Shown in pieces: positions 1,078 to 7,900 of a stretch of DNA of 37,376 bases. Source of the stretch: Thermaceae bacterium. Its GTDB lineage: Bacteria > Deinococcota > Deinococci > Deinococcales > Marinithermaceae. The notes beneath the pieces were generated by a model. The model was not told the origin of the DNA and searched no databases. It worked only from the letters and a program-made list of their open reading frames with translations. Where the stretch lies: positions 1 through 37,376 of the forward strand of contig JALSIA010000221.1 in the NCBI GenBank assembly GCA_026981865.1. The letters run 5' to 3'. Within the stretch, counting starts at the first letter, position 1. Every line of letters begins with the position of its first letter. The translations under genes and the position numbers were made by a program.

Positions 1078-1342
1078 GGTCTTCTTCGAGGACGAAACCC
1101 TGACCGAGGGCCTGACCGACGACGAGGCCCGCGACCTGCTGGCCTGGCTGGTGGGGCTGGCCGACGAGATGGAGGGCGAGGACCCCGCCTACATCGAACA
1201 GCTCAAACGCCTGGGCCGGCACTTGGCGCGCCTGAGCGCCCGCTGGGGGGTGCCCGTGGGCGACCTGATCGACCTGGTGGAGATCGCCTGGGAGGACCCC
1301 GACCAGCCGCAGGGCCGCCCGCCGCGGCCGATGCGGGCCTAG
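1061..1342 (+). CDS. Small acidic protein of unknown function
   Basis: This 93-residue frame probably starts at GTG 1061, inside the 3' end of the FtsB-like gene, with GAGGTG 4-9 nt upstream as ribosome binding site. A TTG at 1031 in the same frame is a less likely start. The protein is acidic and helical-looking, rich in Glu, Asp and Leu (DDEARDLLAWLVGLADEM), with no membrane segment, signal peptide or Cys motif. The overlap with the upstream gene indicates a translationally coupled pair. No family was recognised. Confidence 0.65.
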   Translation: MPHPAEVFFEDETLTEGLTDDEARDLLAWLVGLADEMEGEDPAYIEQLKRLGRHLARLSARWGVPVGDLIDLVEIAWEDPDQPQGRPPRPMRA

Positions 1343-1536
1343 GCTCACGCTGGGAAAGGGCACGAGGAATCCTCGCAGCGCTGCGACGAGGCCAGGCTTA
1401 CCTGCAAGCCGTGCAGTGCGCAACTCAACGAAGTCCGCTGGTTGAGGCCTAACCACGCACGCTGCCGTCGCTTTGAACCAGCCGCCTTGTCTGCCTGCTG
1501 TACAATTAATCAAAGATTGAGACTGCGGCCAACGAG
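1343..1536. other. Gene-free left border of the island
   Basis: These 194 bases contain no convincing gene or RNA. A short inverted repeat (CTCAAC ... GTTGAG, around 1422-1445) is visible but too small to interpret. No attachment-site duplication was found when compared by eye with the other border near 4680. Confidence 0.3.
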
Positions 1537-1800
1537 GTGCTAGTCATGGACATAAGACTAGGCGGTGCCCGGAACCCTCTCGAACAGTCACTGCTGCACG
1601 AGTTCGAGGAGCACCGCAAATCTCACCTGAAACGCCAGAAGGCTCTTCATTCAGAGGCCGTCTACACCGGTTCAAGAAGGCATGGCAGGCGCACGATCAT
1701 GCCACCTCCATCGTCGTGTCACACAAGATCCCAGGCAACACCCCCAAGGAGGAGCCCTAGCTCCTCATGTGGTTCGACCAAGCAGTAACCAGGATGGGAG
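1537..1800 (+). pseudogene. Frameshifted remnant of a larger gene's 3' end
   Basis: From GTG 1537 one frame reads through HEFEEHRKSHLKRQKALHSE and EAVYTG. Near 1670 the protein-like signal moves into another frame, reading FKKAWQAHDHATSIVV and then, after an in-frame stop, LLMWFDQAVTRMGGE, ending at TAA just before the SIR2 start. The stitched text resembles a continuous helical C-terminus interrupted by one frameshift and one stop. It faintly recalls the tails of large defence-island ATPases of the DUF499 type, but that recollection was not tested. The segment belongs to the island by composition. It could also be non-coding DNA read by chance. Confidence 0.4.
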
Positions 1801-1807
1801 GAGAGTA

Positions 1808-2869
1808 ATGCCTACAAAAACAGTCTTAGACTGGATTATAGATGCTAACACCTGTTTCCTAGTAGGCGCTGGCTGCAGCAAATGCGCGGGAAAGCCTTTA
1901 ATCGGAGAACTAACCGAAGAAGTAAGGAAAGCCTTATCACGCCCAGCTAAAGCCATCCTTGAGGACTTGCGCGGCACCTACGGTCGTTCCGCCACGGTTG
2001 AGGATCTGATCAATCATCTCCTCCAGCTTCACAAGCTTTTATCCTCTAGAAAAAGTCAAGAACATGAAGACTGGACTCCCAAGAGTATTGAACAGGAGAT
2101 TGCCACGATCCAAAGGGCAATAGTTGAAGCCATAGGAACTGAATGGGCAGGCAGCGATATCCACAAGAAATTTCTATTGCGCCTAACAGATCAGCGCGCC
2201 AGAAAAACCTGCGACATCTTTTGCCTTAACTATGACACCGTAATCGAAGCGAGTTTAGAAGAGCTAAGGCTTCCCTATACCGATGGTTTCCGCGGTGCGG
2301 AGAATGCGTATTTCGACCCATCTCTGTACGGTCAGATCCCAGGAAACGGCCCGTATTTCAGGGTGTTCAAACTGCACGGCTCGATTAATTGGATACGGGA
2401 CGCAGATGAAACTGTTCGGCGCCGGCCTGCGACGGCTGTCGAAGATCGCCGTAGAGCTGTGGTCTACCCAGCAGAACAAAAGTACGTTCAGACTCAGTAC
2501 GGCGTCTATGAAACATTACTGTCACTTTTTAGGGACCGCCTAAGAGAAGATCGCCCCAACAATAAACTCGTTGTAATTGGCTATAGTTTTAGTGATGAGC
2601 ACATTAACGTGGCTATCGAGGATAGCATTCTCGCTGATGGCAGCAACTTAACAGTCTACGGTTTTGTCGGGCCAGAAGAGAACAAAGAGGAACAGGAAAA
2701 GCGTTTAAGGGAAATGGCGGCGCGCTGTGACGACCGGTTTAATGTCTTTATCGGACAACACGCATACATTAGCTCGTCCATCGAGCCTGATGAGTGGGAG
2801 GAGATTAAAAAGCTAGATCTCTGGAAGTTTGAGAACTTGGTCAACCTAATGGTTGGAGGTGGCCGATGA
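1808..2869 (+). CDS. SIR2-family NADase-like protein of a SIR2-HerA defence pair
   Basis: This 353-residue protein starts at ATG 1808 after a strong GGGAGGAG. SIR2 signatures are in order: FLVGAGCS (17-24) for NAD binding, LNYDT with Asn141, KLHGSINW with His190, and the C-terminal VIGYSFSDEHIN (about 256-266). Asn and His are the residues expected for NAD+ hydrolysis. In characterised SIR2-HerA systems the SIR2 subunit assembles with HerA and depletes NAD+ during phage infection. The stop overlaps the HerA start as ATGA, so the two are co-translated. GC content is far below the neighbours (53% in one 60-nt line counted), which points to horizontal acquisition. The family call is firm; the defence role is inferred from the pairing. 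Confidence 0.9.
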   Translation: MPTKTVLDWIIDANTCFLVGAGCSKCAGKPLIGELTEEVRKALSRPAKAILEDLRGTYGRSATVEDLINHLLQLHKLLSSRKSQEHEDWTPKSIEQEIATIQRAIVEAIGTEWAGSDIHKKFLLRLTDQRARKTCDIFCLNYDTVIEASLEELRLPYTDGFRGAENAYFDPSLYGQIPGNGPYFRVFKLHGSINWIRDADETVRRRPATAVEDRRRAVVYPAEQKYVQTQYGVYETLLSLFRDRLREDRPNNKLVVIGYSFSDEHINVAIEDSILADGSNLTVYGFVGPEENKEEQEKRLREMAARCDDRFNVFIGQHAYISSSIEPDEWEEIKKLDLWKFENLVNLMVGGGR

Positions 2870-4503
2870 GTCAGAGCGTCTTGCGCATAGGCCGCGTAAT
2901 CGAGGTGAATGGGTCTAGAACCATCGGTGAATTGGAGGCATCTGTAGACGATCTGTATCGAACATATAAAAGTCGCAAATATACGATAGGACAAGTTGGC
3001 TCAATTGTAAAAATTGAGTCTGGCGATCTCCTGATTTTCGGAATAGTCATCTCCTTGAGAATGGAGGAGACGGATTCCACGCAAGCCAACACAGCTGGTC
3101 GTACCGAATCATCAGCGAAATGGATAGAAATAGAGCTCTTTGGACAAGGTCACAAGACAGGGTTGGGAGAAGCAGAATTTCATTTCGAACGAGGCATTTC
3201 GACTTATCCATTGCCCGGCCAAGCGATTTACCTTGCGACCGTTGAGGAACTCCGTCGGATCTATGCCAAGCCGGACAGGCCAACCATTAAAGTGGGTAGT
3301 GTCGCTCAAGCGCGCGGGTTGCCTGTTCATCTGCTAACGAATGAGCTACTTGGGAAACATTTTGCGATACTTGGAACTACCGGTTCTGGAAAATCATGCG
3401 CCGTTGCGCTTCTCATACACAGTATTATCGAGGAATATCCGCACTCGCATATTATTCTCCTCGACCCCCACAATGAATACTACAGAGCCTTTCCAGAAAA
3501 GGCCGAGATAATTGATCCAACATCACTCGAAATACCGCACTGGCTGCTAACCCTCGAAGAGAGCATAGAGCTCTTCATAGGTAGAACTGAACATGCAGCA
3601 ACACGCCAGACGAACATTCTTAAGGACGCCATTCTGCAGGCGCGGAAAGGTTTTCCTGATCAAGCCATGCCTATCGAGAAGATTACTGTAGATACACCAG
3701 TGCCATATAGGCTTGGAGATCTTGTCAGTAACATTAACGCGTCAAAGCCGTCACAAGCGTCAAAAGCCGAGTCGCATGAGAAAATCCTAGCAAAGATTGA
3801 AACGTTACAAGCAGACAAGCGGTTTGAGTTTCTTTTGCGTCCTGATGATAGCGTATCCGACAATCTTGCAGATCTATTATCACAGTTGTTCAGGATACCG
3901 GATAAAGGGAAGCCATTGACCATAATAGATTTGTCAGGTGTCCCATCAGATGTCGTGGATGTTGTGGTATCAGTCCTCTGTCGCACTATTTTTGACTTTG
4001 CTCTTTGGAACCCAAAGCGGTCTGAGATTCCATTATTTCTCGTATGCGAAGAGGCGCATCGTTACGCCCCGAGGAGCGAGGAGGCGTCCTTCCAGCCGAC
4101 GAAGCGTGCGTTGGCGCGCATTGCGAAAGAAGGAAGGAAATATGGCGTTGGGCTCGCCCTAGTGACACAAAGACCATCCGAACTTTCAGAGAGTATACTT
4201 TCTCAATGTAACACGATTATCGCTCTTCGGATGAGCAATGAGCAGGATCAGCACTTTGTACGAAGAGCACTTCCAGATAGCGTTAGAAGTCTGGTTGATG
4301 CTCTTCCAGCACTGCGCACGCGGGAGGCGCTGGTAGTCGGTGAGGGAACAGCAGTTCCAGTACGGATGCTTTTTAACGAAATCCCGGAAGACAGGCGACC
4401 GCATAGCGCAGACGTTCCATACGCCGAAGCGTGGCAAAAGGAATGTGGTAATGAGGAAATGGTGAGGGATGTTGTGAAACGGTGGCGAGAGCAACAGCGA
4501 TGA
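2866..4503 (+). CDS. HerA-like hexameric ATPase of a SIR2-HerA defence pair
   Basis: This 545-residue protein has an N-terminal beta-barrel (HAS-like) region to about 140, then a RecA-like ATPase core. The Walker A motif GTTGSGKS is at 170-177, LLDPHNEY at about 198-205, the Walker B-type LVCEEAHRY at about 390-400, and the sensor segment LALVTQRPSELS follows. This order is typical of HerA/FtsK-superfamily translocases. No nurA is nearby, so it is not the standard end-resection pair. The partner is the upstream SIR2 gene, which overlaps by 4 bp. The family forms hexameric rings that scaffold SIR2 subunits. Composition is low-GC (45% in one 60-nt line counted) against about 70% nearby. Confidence 0.92.
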   Translation: MSQSVLRIGRVIEVNGSRTIGELEASVDDLYRTYKSRKYTIGQVGSIVKIESGDLLIFGIVISLRMEETDSTQANTAGRTESSAKWIEIELFGQGHKTGLGEAEFHFERGISTYPLPGQAIYLATVEELRRIYAKPDRPTIKVGSVAQARGLPVHLLTNELLGKHFAILGTTGSGKSCAVALLIHSIIEEYPHSHIILLDPHNEYYRAFPEKAEIIDPTSLEIPHWLLTLEESIELFIGRTEHAATRQTNILKDAILQARKGFPDQAMPIEKITVDTPVPYRLGDLVSNINASKPSQASKAESHEKILAKIETLQADKRFEFLLRPDDSVSDNLADLLSQLFRIPDKGKPLTIIDLSGVPSDVVDVVVSVLCRTIFDFALWNPKRSEIPLFLVCEEAHRYAPRSEEASFQPTKRALARIAKEGRKYGVGLALVTQRPSELSESILSQCNTIIALRMSNEQDQHFVRRALPDSVRSLVDALPALRTREALVVGEGTAVPVRMLFNEIPEDRRPHSADVPYAEAWQKECGNEEMVRDVVKRWREQQR

Positions 4504-4580
4504 AGGAGACTTCAAGAGATTGTGCTCGGCCGGGGCCTAGTGGAGAAGTGAGCAACGATGACCCTGTCGGTGGAAAATGA
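4500..4580 (+). CDS. 26-residue open frame overlapping the HerA stop (doubtful)
   Basis: An ATG at 4500 overlaps the HerA stop as ATGA and opens a 26-residue frame ending at TGA 4578-4580. It contains no recognisable motif and overlaps the next fragment. The coupling geometry is the only support. It may be a chance frame or the start of a lost third gene. Confidence 0.15.
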   Translation: MKETSRDCARPGPSGEVSNDDPVGGK

Positions 4581-4680
4581 CAACTGGTACTACAGCCCCG
4601 AGCACGGGGAGCTCTGCCGGGTCATCGAGACCCAGACGCTCTGGGGCGAGACCTTCTGCCGTGTCTGGCTGCCGGTCTAG
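4558..4680 (+). pseudogene. Fragment resembling a segment of a SNF2-type helicase protein
   Basis: A 40-residue frame from ATG 4558, preceded by GGAGAAG, reads YYSPEHGELCRV, then IETQTLWGETFCRVWLPV, then TAG. This Cys/Trp-containing text looks like a conserved domain segment, not random sequence. From memory it resembles a region near the N-terminus of helicase-related defence proteins. The reading frame stops abruptly, so the rest of the gene is missing. The family suggestion is tentative, while the protein-like character of the fragment is clear. Confidence 0.4.
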
Positions 4681-4910
4681 CGGGTCGTTGGTGTGCTTTT
4701 TGCTTCGTCCTTGTCCACAACCCCCTAGGGCAGGGTGCTATTTTACGCCGCAACTTTACGAAAGGCTTTGGCCGCCGCGAGGAGGCCGCATAAAAGCCTG
4801 TAGGCTACGCGCTACCTTCCTCCGGCCGCTGATACCTCCACCGCCACCAACGGCGTACCGCACAAGGCGTTCCCTCTACATCGTACCGTGCACCACGAAC
4901 CACGCACCTT
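4681..4910. other. Gene-free segment between the island and dnaE
   Basis: These 230 bases separate the helicase-like fragment from the dnaE stop. No gene, hairpin terminator or RNA is evident. GC-rich host-like sequence resumes here, so the island's right border lies at or just before this stretch. Confidence 0.35.
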
Positions 4911-7900
4911 CTAGAAAGGCACCACCTCGGCCTGGCCCTCGCCGCCCAGCTTGCCCGCGAGCAGCGCTTCGCGATCGGGCAGCGAGCGCACCTCGAGCCC
5001 CTCCAGCTTTTCCAGCTCGGCGGTGACGCCGGGGTCGACGCGCACCTCGCGCGCCTCCAGAAGCGCCCATCCCCCGGGGCCGCGCACCTTCAGGTAAACG
5101 GGTACGACGCCCGGGTGCTCGTCAAGCAGGCTGCGCAGGTCGAGCAAACGCGCGTCGTCCATCAGGCTCAGGTCAAAGCCCAGCTCGAGCACCTGGGGCA
5201 GGCCGTCCAGTTCCTCGTAGAGGAAGACGTCCTGCACCATCACCCGCAGGCTCTCGCCGTCGGCGTCGGGCTCCACGTCGCAGACGGCGATGACCGGCAT
5301 GTCCTCCTTGACCCGCGTCATCACCCGGTCGTAGGCGCGGCCGAAGACCACCACCTCGAGCGCGCCCGAGGCGTCGGCCAGGTTGAAGCGCGCCATCATC
5401 CCGCCCGAGCGCGTGGAGCGGCGTACGATCTGCTCGACCATCCCTGCGAGCAGCACCCGCACCCGCGACTTGGAGCCCGAGTTCTGCTCGTACCAGCGTG
5501 CCACCTCGGCGACCTGGCAGGTGGCCGCCTCGGCGAGGCCGGGGTAGTGCTCCAGCGGGTGCCCGGTCACGTAGATGCCCAGGGCCTCCTTCTCGAAGCG
5601 CAGCCGGATCACCTCCTCGAGCGGCGCGGTCTCGGGCAGCGGCGGCTCGGTGACGCCGTCGTCGAAAAGGCCGGTCAGGCCGCCCGCGGTCTTCTGCTGC
5701 TCGGCGGCGGCCCACTTGAGCAGGCCCTCCATGGCGTCGAGCATCTGCCCGCGCTCGCCGAAGGCGTCGAAGGCGCCGGCCTTGATGAGCGACTCGAGCG
5801 CGCGCTTGTTGACGTGGTGCAGGTCCACCCGCCGCAGGAAGTCGGGCAGGCTCCGGTAGGGCCCGCCCTTCTCGCGCTCGGCGAGAATGCTCTCCACCGC
5901 CCCCTCGCCCACGTTCTTGACCGCCGAGAGGCCGAAGAGGATCTCGCGCCCCACGACGCTAAAGTCGGCCCCCGAGCGGTTGATGTCGGGCGGCAGCACG
6001 TGGATGCCGCCGGCCTCGGCGTCGCGGATGTACTCGGCCACCTTGTCCGAGTTGCGGCGTTCCACCGTGAGCAGCGCGGCCATGAACTCGACCGGGAAGT
6101 GGGCCTTCACGTAGGCCGTCTGGTACGAGATCAGCGAGTAGGCCGCGGCGTGCGACTTGTTGAAGCCGTAGTTGGCGAAGGCCTCGAGCAGGTCGAAGAT
6201 GCGGCTGGCCTCGTCGGGGGGGACGCCCCGCTTCTCGGCGCCGGTGATGAAGCGGTCGCGGTGGGCCTTCAGCTCTTCGACCTTCTTCTTGCCCATCGCG
6301 CGACGGAGCAGGTCGGCTTCGCCCAGGGTGTAGCCCGCCACCGCGCTGGCGATCTGCATGATCTGCTCCTGGTAGACGGGGATGCCGTAGGTCTCGGCCA
6401 GGATGGGCTCGAGCATCTCCGCGGCGTGGGGGAACTCGGCGTAGCTCACCGGCTCCTGCCCGTGGCGACGGCGCAGGTAGGTGGGGATGTTGTCCATCGG
6501 CCCCGGCCGGTAGAGCGAGACGATGGCGATGATGTCGTGCAGCCGCTCGGGTTTGAAGGCCTTGACCGTGTTCGTCATCCCCGTGCCCTCGAGCTGGAAG
6601 ACGCCCTTGGTGTCGCCGCGGCCCAGCATCTCGAAGGTCTTGGGGTCGTCGAGGGGCAGGTTGTCGTAGTCGAGCTCCACGCCCGCGGATTCCCTCACGA
6701 TGCGCTTCGCCTCGTCCAAAAACGAGAGCGTGCGCAGCCCCAGGAAGTCCATCTTGAGCAGGCCCAGCGCCTCCACCGACCCCATGTCGTACTGGGTGAC
6801 GACGCCGTCGCCGCGGGTGTCGCGCATCAGCGGCACCAGGTCGGTGAGCGGCTCGTCGGCGATCACCACCCCCGCGGCGTGCACCGAAGCGTGGCGGTTC
6901 AGCCCCTCGAGCCGCTGGGCGATCTCCAGCACCTCGCGCACGGTCGCGTCCTGCTGCATCGCCGCCTTGAGCTCGGGGATCTGCTCCATCGCCCGCGCCA
7001 GCGGCAGCGGCTTGCCGAACTGCACCGGAATCAGCTTGGCCAGCTGCTCGGCGCGCTTGTACTCGAGCCCGTAGACCCGGGCCACGTCCTTGAGCGCCGC
7101 CTTGGAGGCCAGCGTCCCGAAGGTGGCGATCTGGGCCACCTTGTCCTCGCCGTAACGCTCGCGCACGTAGTCGATCACCTCGTCACGGCGCACGTCCGAG
7201 AAGTCGGTGTCGATGTCGGGCATGCTCACGCGCGCGGGGTTGAGGAAGCGCTCGAAGAGCAGGCCGAACTCGAGCGGGTCGATGTTGGTGATCCGGATCG
7301 CATAGGCCACCAGGCTGCCCGCGGCGCTGCCGCGCCCGGGCCCCACGCTGATGCCGTGGTCCTTGGCCCAGTTGATGTAGTCCTGGACGATCAGCAGGTA
7401 GCCGGGAAACCCCATCTGCTCGATCGTGCCCAGCTCGTACTCGGCCCGCGCCAGCACGCTCCAGCCGTCCCACTCGTGCACGTTGCGCACCTCGGGGAAG
7501 AAGTCCACCCGCTCCCGCGTTTCGCGGTCCAGCCGCGCGAGCTGCAGAATCAGGTCTTCTTCGCGCTCGGCCGGCTCGATCTCGAGCCGGGTCAGGTAGG
7601 CGCGGTAGAGCGCGGGGTTCACCCGGTCGGGGTAGCGCTCCAAGAGCCCCTTGAAGGTCAGCTCGCGCAGGTACTGGTTCTCGTCGCGCCCCTCGGGCAG
7701 CGGGTAGCGCGGGATGCGGTAGGTCATCTTGTCGCCCACCGGCAGCTCTACGTTGCACATCGCCGCGATCTCGGCGCTGTTGCTGAAGATCTCGTCGGGC
7801 CAGTCGGGGAGCGCCTGCTTCATCTCCTCGGGCGTCTTGACGTAGAACTCGTCGCAGGGGAACTTCCAGCGGTCCTCGTCGGCCAGCGTCGCCTTCGACT

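What the first reader, a model, noticed from the sequence alone, without database searches (positions are those of the whole stretch)
1808..4503. SIR2-HerA defence pair on a low-GC island
The two genes overlap as ATGA. SIR2 retains Asn141 and His190, HerA retains Walker A and B, and both are far lower in GC (45-53% in two lines counted) than the surrounding DNA. The system is known in mesophiles; a thermophile copy beside a housekeeping polymerase gene would be a useful heat-stable model.
Basis: partly seen in the sequence, partly recalled or inferred. Interest (0 to 1): 0.6.

Follow-up and report, generated by a model that had tools for sequence, protein, structure and literature searches.

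The report
SIR2-HerA cassette orphaned from BREX operon
A bacterium of a heat-loving group carries a known two-gene anti-virus system whose edges still hold broken ends of two genes from a larger anti-virus system (BREX), which suggests that it is a plug-in defence cassette that outlived, or travelled without, its parent system.

Summary
Window 1808-2869 encodes a SIR2-like protein (Asn141, His190 present) and 2866-4503 a HerA ATPase (Walker A and B present). They overlap as ATGA at about 48.5% GC in a window averaging 66.5%. Their best solved relatives share four PDB entries. The pair belongs to a known system (SIR2-HerA, also called Nezha).

Directly upstream is a frame-broken remnant of the PglXI C-terminus; just downstream are the first ~40 codons of BrxHII. 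These genes are neighbours in type-3 BREX operons. A 3.4-kb metagenomic contig has the same pair (HerA 99% identical) between a pglXI 3' end and a brxHII start. In 15 of 20 scorable BREX-3 operons that junction holds at least 1 kb of extra DNA, often with defence-like genes. A second two-scar orphan, with AAA-ATPase and subtilase genes, turned up in another phylum; a plasmid shows a third with the upstream scar only.

So the pair looks like a BREX-3 cargo cassette living without BREX in an Oceanithermus-group chromosome. It keeps a Shine-Dalgarno-like motif and TAATG overlap from the pglXI end. The SIR2 gene is mosaic relative to the contig. Activity and heat stability are untested.

The parts
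1671..1808 (+). Scar of the 3' end of a type-3 BREX pglXI methyltransferase gene (last ~45 codons, with an in-frame TAG, then a TAA stop). Weaker, frame-shifted similarity may begin near 1590 (by eye).
   Evidence: PglXI profile positions 874-918 of 919, E 3e-10, one internal TAG; 70.5 bits to an intact PglXI tail against at most 22.7 in 40 shuffles; frames read side by side.
1796..1810 (+). GGGAGGAGAGTAATG: Shine-Dalgarno-like motif inside the last pglXI codons, and the pglXI stop TAA (1806-1808) overlapping the SIR2 start ATG (1808-1810).
   Evidence: Sequence. The same TAATG arrangement precedes unrelated first cargo genes in other BREX-3 loci (the window row of that script failed, so the window motif is read). 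That it drives translation is inference.
1808..2869 (+). SIR2-like NAD+ hydrolase gene (353 aa), N141 and H190 kept
   Evidence: Pfam SIR2_2 3e-12, PADLOC SIR2 2e-47, PDB 8w9l 1e-24, active-site columns.
2198..2199 (.). Identity breakpoint inside SIR2 against L003: 67% nucleotide identity before, 97% after
   Evidence: Log-likelihood gain 193.6 against at most 8.4 in 200 shuffles.
2866..4503 (+). HerA-type ATPase gene (545 aa), Walker A 170-177, Walker B ending at EE 395-396
   Evidence: Pfam DUF87 6e-49, PADLOC HerA 3e-137, PDB 8wiv 4e-79, motifs.
4558..4680 (+). Scar of the 5' end of brxHII (first ~40 codons up to CRVWLP, then a stop; one alignment runs weakly on to 4713)
   Evidence: PADLOC model BrxHI|BrxHII positions 3-36, 2e-10; 74.7 bits to an intact BrxHII head against at most 18.9 in 40 shuffles; the first 20 codons are the same in L003, whose contig then ends.
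1342..4911 (.). Whole foreign stretch between a small ORF (1031-1342) and the dnaE 3' end; two same-genus genomes have shorter other DNA here
   Evidence: BLASTN: homology to G001 and G002 stops at 1341 and resumes at 4912-4913; G001 has ~540 bp and G002 ~1.1 kb there; G004 has 2.4 kb with a different gene.

Best explanation
The pair is an intact SIR2-HerA (Nezha-type) anti-phage system that sits in the chromosome as an orphaned cargo cassette of a type-3 BREX operon. In type-3 BREX the junction between pglXI and brxHII is a slot for varied extra genes, many of them defence-like. This cassette occupied such a slot, directly behind the pglXI stop codon. It ended up between a small ORF and dnaE of an Oceanithermus-group bacterium with only the tail of pglXI and the head of brxHII, and these have since decayed. 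Likely working: SIR2 and HerA assemble into one complex; phage infection activates it; SIR2 hydrolyses NAD+ while HerA acts on DNA, stopping phage replication. Shown here: gene identities, active-site residues, scars, sites without the cassette, slot statistics, a second two-scar orphan. Inferred: NADase activity, phage defence and complex formation (from studied homologues), translation from the pglXI-derived motif, and the order of events (cassette transfer with its flanks, or deletion of BREX around it).
For: Identity; entries 8wld, 8woc, 8wod and 8wof hold both best relatives. Scars. Same pair in BREX-3 context: L003 (pglXI 3' part, SIR2, HerA, brxHII start) and L138 (near-complete pglXI, then SIR2 55.5% and HerA 74.2%; two more genes follow and the contig ends before any brxHII). 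Slot: gaps of at least 1 kb at pglXI|brxHII in 16 of 21, or 15 of 20 leaving out L134 whose 'brxHII' is a remote 26% helicase, against 1 of 18 at brxHII|pglZ, 0 of 19 at pglZ|brxA, 2 of 7 at brxC|pglXI and 0 of 4 at brxF|brxC. Recurrence: L220 carries the AAA+subtilase genes seen in the slots of L143, L145, L146 and L149, between a decayed PglXI tail and a BrxHII head; pGSUB1 has a PglXI tail before an ATPase gene. No other BREX sign in this genome: PglZ no match, PglXI only the scar. Sites without the cassette. Selection: both genes open while the flanks are broken; HerA against L003 differs at 12 bases, 8 in third positions.
Against: No activity was tested. The genome is a draft (88% complete, 228 contigs), so a BREX operon elsewhere could be missing. 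No sigma-70-like promoter was found on the + strand between 1300 and 5000, so expression is not assured. L003 is a 3.4-kb contig of a metagenome bin; its pglXI tail has 65% GC (87% at third positions) against 49-58% for the other G111 stretches measured, so its host is uncertain. L220's scars score lower (39.3 and 38.9 bits against at most 21.2 and 22.7 for shuffles). pGSUB1 shows only the upstream scar. Five of the 20 scorable slots are short (89-534 bp), among them all three plasmid ones. The sample comes mainly from one phylum.
Confidence: 0.82

Rival explanations
1. A variant on the order of events: a complete type-3 BREX operon once sat at this dnaE site and was deleted around the cargo, rather than the cassette arriving with only its flanks.
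For: Scars on both sides are what two flanking deletions would leave; many intact operons carry cargo in this slot.
Against: In the genome only the pglXI end was found by the PglXI and PglZ searches (BrxC, BrxF and BrxA were not searched); the other five genomes of the genus searched have no PglXI match; two of them have only ~540 bp and ~1.1 kb of other DNA at the site. A second orphan shows similar extents.
Confidence: 0.4
2. The pair is an ordinary SIR2-HerA island gained as such; the flanking similarities are incidental.
For: SIR2-HerA pairs occur without BREX: 19 of the 21 paired places gave no PglXI, BrxHII or PglZ match, though at most 1.5 kb on each side of the HerA match was held.
Against: Both scars are statistically clear, in the right order, orientation and position, and a contig with the same HerA (99%) has pglXI and brxHII exactly there.
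Confidence: 0.04
3. The arrangement or the mosaic SIR2 is an assembly artefact of metagenome binning.
For: The window genome and L003 are drafts; the window-L003 comparison has an abrupt breakpoint at 2198 and L003 has an odd GC for its bin.
Against: In the window, genes matching the genus lie on both sides in one contig, so two false joins would be needed. L138, from another genome, shows pglXI directly followed by the pair.
Confidence: 0.08
4. The pair is a decaying relic without function.
For: Its neighbours are decayed and no promoter was recognised.
Against: Two complete open frames with all motifs; 8 of 12 changes between the two HerA copies are in third positions (one-sided binomial p 0.019).
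Confidence: 0.12

Closest known systems
SIR2-HerA (Nezha) anti-phage system; solved entries 8wld, 8woc, 8wod, 8wof
   Same: Same two kinds of protein, adjacent, with catalytic Asn/His and Walker motifs; most of each protein aligns.
   Different: Distant in sequence from the solved copies (SIR2 90 bits, HerA 270 bits); under NCBIfam's curated cut-offs for the named anti-phage subfamilies (74 of 500 and 336 of 850 bits). Embedded in BREX scars. No study of a copy from this lineage was seen in the searches made.
Type-3 BREX operon (brxF, brxC, pglXI, brxHII, pglZ, brxA)
   Same: The flanking scars are the ends of pglXI and brxHII in operon order.
   Different: pglXI and brxHII are only fragments here and PglZ has no match in the genome; it is not a BREX system.
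BxaP, a defence gene inserted between PglXI and BrxHII of type-3 BREX (PMC10799925, passages read)
   Same: Same junction, an independently acting defence gene.
   Different: Another gene. The passages read describe no SIR2-HerA, no series of varied cargo and no orphan scars.
Auxiliary and backup nuclease effectors inside BREX core loci (PMC12839542: outline, passages, first parts of sections 25 and 35 read)
   Same: The general idea that BREX loci carry extra effectors.
   Different: That section deals with nucleases; a term search of the main text found no 'SIR2' or 'sirtuin'. Its supplements were not read.

Membership tests
SIR2-HerA (Nezha) system | SIR2-like protein with catalytic Asn and His | tested here: met
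   The functional roles of the Asn/His were read for the V. cholerae homologue (PMC11559045 passages).
SIR2-HerA (Nezha) system | Adjacent HerA-type ATPase with Walker A and B | tested here: met
SIR2-HerA (Nezha) system | The pair co-occurs in other genomes | tested here: met
   SIR2 match beside HerA at 21 of 37 distinct HerA places (two of the 21, L173 and L180, only at 3e-5 and 1e-4), and at 3 of 3 with HerA identity of 65% or more; of ten places at 42-47% identity over most of HerA (L155-L164) one has SIR2 in the flank held.
SIR2-HerA (Nezha) system | 12:6 complex, NAD+ hydrolysis, phage protection | not testable with these tools
   Known for homologues (PMC11559045 passages). A 3-sequence AlphaFold run of SIR2 gave mean pLDDT 46.6 and is uninformative.
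NCBIfam SIR2_antiphage (NF042942) and HerA_antiphage_2 (NF042944) equivalogs | Score above the curated cut-off | tested here: not met
   74.4 of 500 and 335.7 of 850 bits: related, but not these named subfamilies.
Type-3 BREX system | Intact brxC, pglXI, pglZ core | tested here: not met
   Own draft genome: PglXI matches only as the scar, PglZ does not match. BrxC was not searched in the genome.
Cargo cassette of the BREX-3 pglXI|brxHII slot | pglXI 3' end upstream and brxHII 5' end downstream, same strand, adjoining | tested here: met

The most novel reading that the evidence does not exclude
The pglXI|brxHII junction of type-3 BREX is a docking slot for exchangeable defence cassettes. Each cassette is bounded by a short piece of the pglXI tail, which brings its own ribosome-binding site and start overlap, and a short piece of the brxHII head. 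Cassettes move and stack as such units (L139 shows a brxHII head followed by a pglXI tail between two cargos) and survive as free-standing systems without BREX. The Oceanithermus-group SIR2-HerA, the AAA-subtilase pair of L220 and the pGSUB1 ATPase are three such escapees.
Probability: 0.45. Interest if true: 0.68.

Novelty: new variant of a known kind. Interest (0 to 1): 0.5.

Why it matters
If right, BREX-3 operons are sources of stand-alone defence systems, and the scars give a simple way to find such systems: look for orphan pglXI tails and brxHII heads and read what lies between. It also suggests that SIR2-HerA can act either beside BREX, as a back-up when BREX is defeated, or alone, which is directly testable. 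A copy from a moderately thermophilic genus could be a convenient protein for structural work if it proves stable.

Tried and rejected
Searches that led nowhere: an exact 30-mer of the SIR2 gene in viral contigs (0 hits); the SIR2 protein in viral contigs (0 relatives); distant blastn of the cassette in plasmids (one short HerA match); an AlphaFold model of SIR2 from a 3-row alignment (mean pLDDT 46.6, no fold search made); promoter and terminator scan (no more than in shuffles); repeats at the insert edges (none at both boundaries); tRNA genes in the window as an integration site (none).

Considered and rejected: HerA as the DNA-repair HerA (the neighbour is SIR2, and NCBIfam's best match is an anti-phage HerA, 336 bits against 163 for the repair HerA); low GC as proof of entry from a low-GC host (the cassette is low-GC in L003 too); a transfer between phyla read from L003 (its GC makes the bin assignment doubtful).

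Rows dropped before counts: L134 in the slot count (its 'brxHII' is a 26% remote helicase; both counts are given); four pairs of loci are one gene each (41 loci, 37 places). L135, L138, L144, L147 and L150 gave no scorable core junction; L095 and L097 gave no pglXI|brxHII junction. The window row of the script failed (wrong frame) and was not used.
Full report
The observation. SIR2 has N141 in NYD and H190 in LHGS. HerA has GTTGSGKS from residue 170 and FLVCEEAH from 391. Pfam, PADLOC and PDB sequence searches agree on both. The best solved relatives of SIR2 (8w9l) and HerA (8wiv) are both listed in entries 8wld, 8woc, 8wod and 8wof. NCBIfam's named anti-phage equivalogs match well below their cut-offs, so the pair is a distant branch. 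N141 and H190 are invariant in four close SIR2s. GC is 48.5% and 48.6% against a window mean of 66.5% for stretches of that length.

The organism. One search finds dnaE 98% identical in same-genus genome G001, whose main contig is 2,303,940 bp. That is the chromosome length published for Oceanithermus profundus, a moderate thermophile growing at 40-68 C (PMC3111992, passages). The window genome is therefore placed in the genus of G001; it is a draft of 228 contigs, 88% complete. SIR2 has a match in 1 of 61 genomes of the relatives search, the window's own. For HerA, 10 of the 13 other family genomes have only weak matches (best E 3e-8) and 3 have none.

The site. fur, a DivIC-like septum gene and a small ORF on the left and dnaE on the right match relatives. 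Homology to G001 stops at window 1341 and resumes at 4912; G001 has about 540 bp and G002 about 1.1 kb of other DNA there, and G004 has 2.4 kb with a different 591-aa gene. The contigs of G003 and G005 do not span the site in what I fetched. The cassette is thus an insert in a variable gap. No tRNA lies in the window and no repeat pair frames the insert.

The scars. A contig whose title names a Deltaproteobacteria bin and 'Guay16' (L003) has a pair with HerA 99% identical. Its upstream frame is the C-terminus of PglXI (PADLOC 2e-87). The frame that starts downstream is the one that in the window matches PADLOC BrxHI|BrxHII at 2e-10. Type-3 BREX has the order brxF, brxC, pglXI, brxHII, pglZ, brxA (PMC10799925 passages; plasmid operons). 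The window has the same two ends but broken: a PglXI tail with an internal TAG at 1668-1802 (profile positions 874-918 of 919, E 3e-10), and a BrxHII head that meets a stop after CRVWLP. Against panels of intact tails and heads the window scars score 70.5 and 74.7 bits, with at most 22.7 and 18.9 in 40 shuffles each. Other BREX genes are not seen: PglZ has no match in the genome and PglXI only this scar; BrxC, BrxF and BrxA were not searched there. Of 111 genomes of the class searched with the PglXI profile, 22 match; all listed matches outside the window's genome lie in profile positions 114-611, short of the C-terminus.

The slot. The PglXI C-terminus was found in 21 of 395 genomes of the phylum of G111 (L003's genome) at E 1e-10. 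I fetched 23 PglXI stretches from these 21 genomes and read their neighbourhoods. With five plasmid regions added (28 in all), gaps of 1 kb or more lie at pglXI|brxHII in 16 of 21 scorable operons (15 of 20 without L134), at brxHII|pglZ in 1 of 18, at pglZ|brxA in 0 of 19, at brxC|pglXI in 2 of 7 and at brxF|brxC in 0 of 4. The five short pglXI|brxHII gaps are the three plasmid ones (89 bp each), L133 (120) and L137 (534).

The cargo. I scanned 30 proteins with Pfam: 29 of the 52 frames listed, plus one from pGSUB1. They include OLD/TOPRIM-type ATPase plus UvrD helicase (L152), AAA_21 ATPases (L131, L148), an AAA_13 protein (L147; PrrC-like is my recollection), AIPR (L151), GmrSD_N with a DprA-like protein and a DEAD helicase (L140), Schlafen AlbA_2 (L134), a protein kinase (L142), AAA plus S8 subtilase (L145), RNA ligase (L148), and a further SIR2_2 protein (L150). 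Seven of the 30 had no Pfam family at 0.001. SIR2-HerA is one of the cargos (L003, and L138 followed there by a metallophosphatase and an AAA_23 gene); L137 has a more distant pair behind brxA.

Translation. GGAG, GAGG or AGGA starts 5-9 bases before the pglXI stop in 18 of the 23 fetched loci and in L003 and pGSUB1, but in 0 of 4 plasmid operons looked at. In L003, L138, L131, L142, L143, L145, L146, L149 and pGSUB1 the stop TAA overlaps the first cargo ATG as TAATG (for pGSUB1). The window has GGGAGGAGAGTAATG at 1796-1810, as L003 does. My inference is that pglXI's end doubles as the cargo's ribosome-binding site, which would explain why it is kept beside an orphan.

Other orphans and stacking. 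A search with the last 51 residues of L003's PglXI gave 24 of 395 genomes at E 0.01; three (G154, G196, G423) were not. G154 (L220) has an AAA gene 88-89% and a subtilase gene 67-74% identical in protein to those in the slots of L143, L145, L146 and L149. They are preceded by a frame-broken PglXI tail and followed by a BrxHII head whose likeness also ends at CRVWLP (39.3 and 38.9 bits against at most 21.2 and 22.7). No further BREX core gene matched in that 13.8-kb contig. The G423 and G196 matches are weak; G423 showed no such cassette and G196 was not followed. Plasmid pGSUB1 of Geoalkalibacter has a 42-residue PglXI tail directly before an ATPase gene; no BrxHII head was found in the 197 bp after that gene or by tblastn in the 24-kb stretch. 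In L139 a BrxHII head fragment is followed by a PglXI tail fragment between two cargo groups, as stacking of one cassette behind another would leave.

Mosaic SIR2. Between the window and L003, identity changes abruptly at 2198 (SIR2 residue ~130): 67.2% of bases before, 97.0% in the rest of SIR2 and 99.3% in HerA. The log-likelihood gain is 193.6 against at most 8.4 in 200 shuffles, and synonymous differences jump as well (54% of shared residues before, 5.6% and 1.5% after). Either recombination exchanged the 5' third of SIR2, or L003 is an assembly chimera. L003's pglXI tail has 65% GC and 87% at third positions, unlike the other G111 stretches measured (49-58%), so its host is uncertain and I do not claim a transfer between phyla.

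Mechanism. Published work on the V. cholerae homologue (PMC11559045, passages) says that Nezha is a complex of 12 SIR2 and 6 HerA, that it depletes NAD+, and that the catalytic Asn/His and HerA are needed for resistance. The sequence features I could check are present here. Activity, activation trigger and heat stability are not shown.

Literature. Those for SIR2-HerA with BREX, BREX embedded or accessory genes, brxHII/pglXI, Sir2-HerA enzymology, Nezha with BREX, BREX hotspots, Oceanithermus defence, BREX with pglX, Sir2 and HerA and BxaP (94) returned no paper whose listing, or passages where I opened it, describes SIR2-HerA in the pglXI|brxHII slot or orphan BREX-3 cassettes. I opened passages of PMC10952713, PMC12839542, PMC3111992, PMC11559045, PMC10799925 and PMC9122589; all other papers were seen as listings only. 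Close published points are BxaP in the same junction (PMC10799925) and nuclease effectors inside BREX loci (PMC12839542). Preprints outside PubMed Central and most subscription papers are not in this library.

Verdict. The pair itself is a known kind. Its state as a scarred, free-standing cassette from a BREX-3 slot, with an independent parallel, is not described in what I could search, and it is testable.

Noticed in passing
L130:9811-11160, L132:3458-4807, L139:6624-7973: A 449-aa cargo protein recurs in three BREX-3 slots (alike by eye); the L130 copy has no Pfam match at 0.001. A candidate unknown defence protein.
   Followed up: partly
L143, L145, L146, L149 slots; L220:4259-7847: An AAA ATPase plus S8 subtilase pair recurs in four BREX-3 slots and once as a two-scar orphan without other BREX genes on its contig.
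   Followed up: partly
L131:4830-5282 and L132:4807-5335: Both have a brxHII head fragment, then a small gene (97 and 126 aa, alike by eye), then brxHII again.
   Followed up: no
L137:7494-10431: A more distant SIR2-HerA pair lies some 0.7 kb behind brxA of a BREX-3 operon, outside the usual slot.
   Followed up: no
L155-L162; L089:14845-16482: HerA-like ATPases 41-47% identical to the window's stand without SIR2 in the flank held (eight places; a Sphingomonas plasmid): a solo relative of unknown role.
   Followed up: partly
L092:12001-13352 (pGSUB1, Geoalkalibacter): The 42-residue PglXI tail is 97.6% identical to that of the L143 operon and precedes an ATPase gene, with methylase and nuclease-domain genes behind it.
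   Followed up: partly
L052:5066-6841 (G004): The same fur-dnaE gap in another species of the genus holds a 591-aa repeat-rich protein gene instead, so the gap is a variable site.
   Followed up: no
L004:1-5653: The Anaerolineae relative of the pair (SIR2 46%, HerA 66%) follows a type III restriction enzyme gene.
   Followed up: partly
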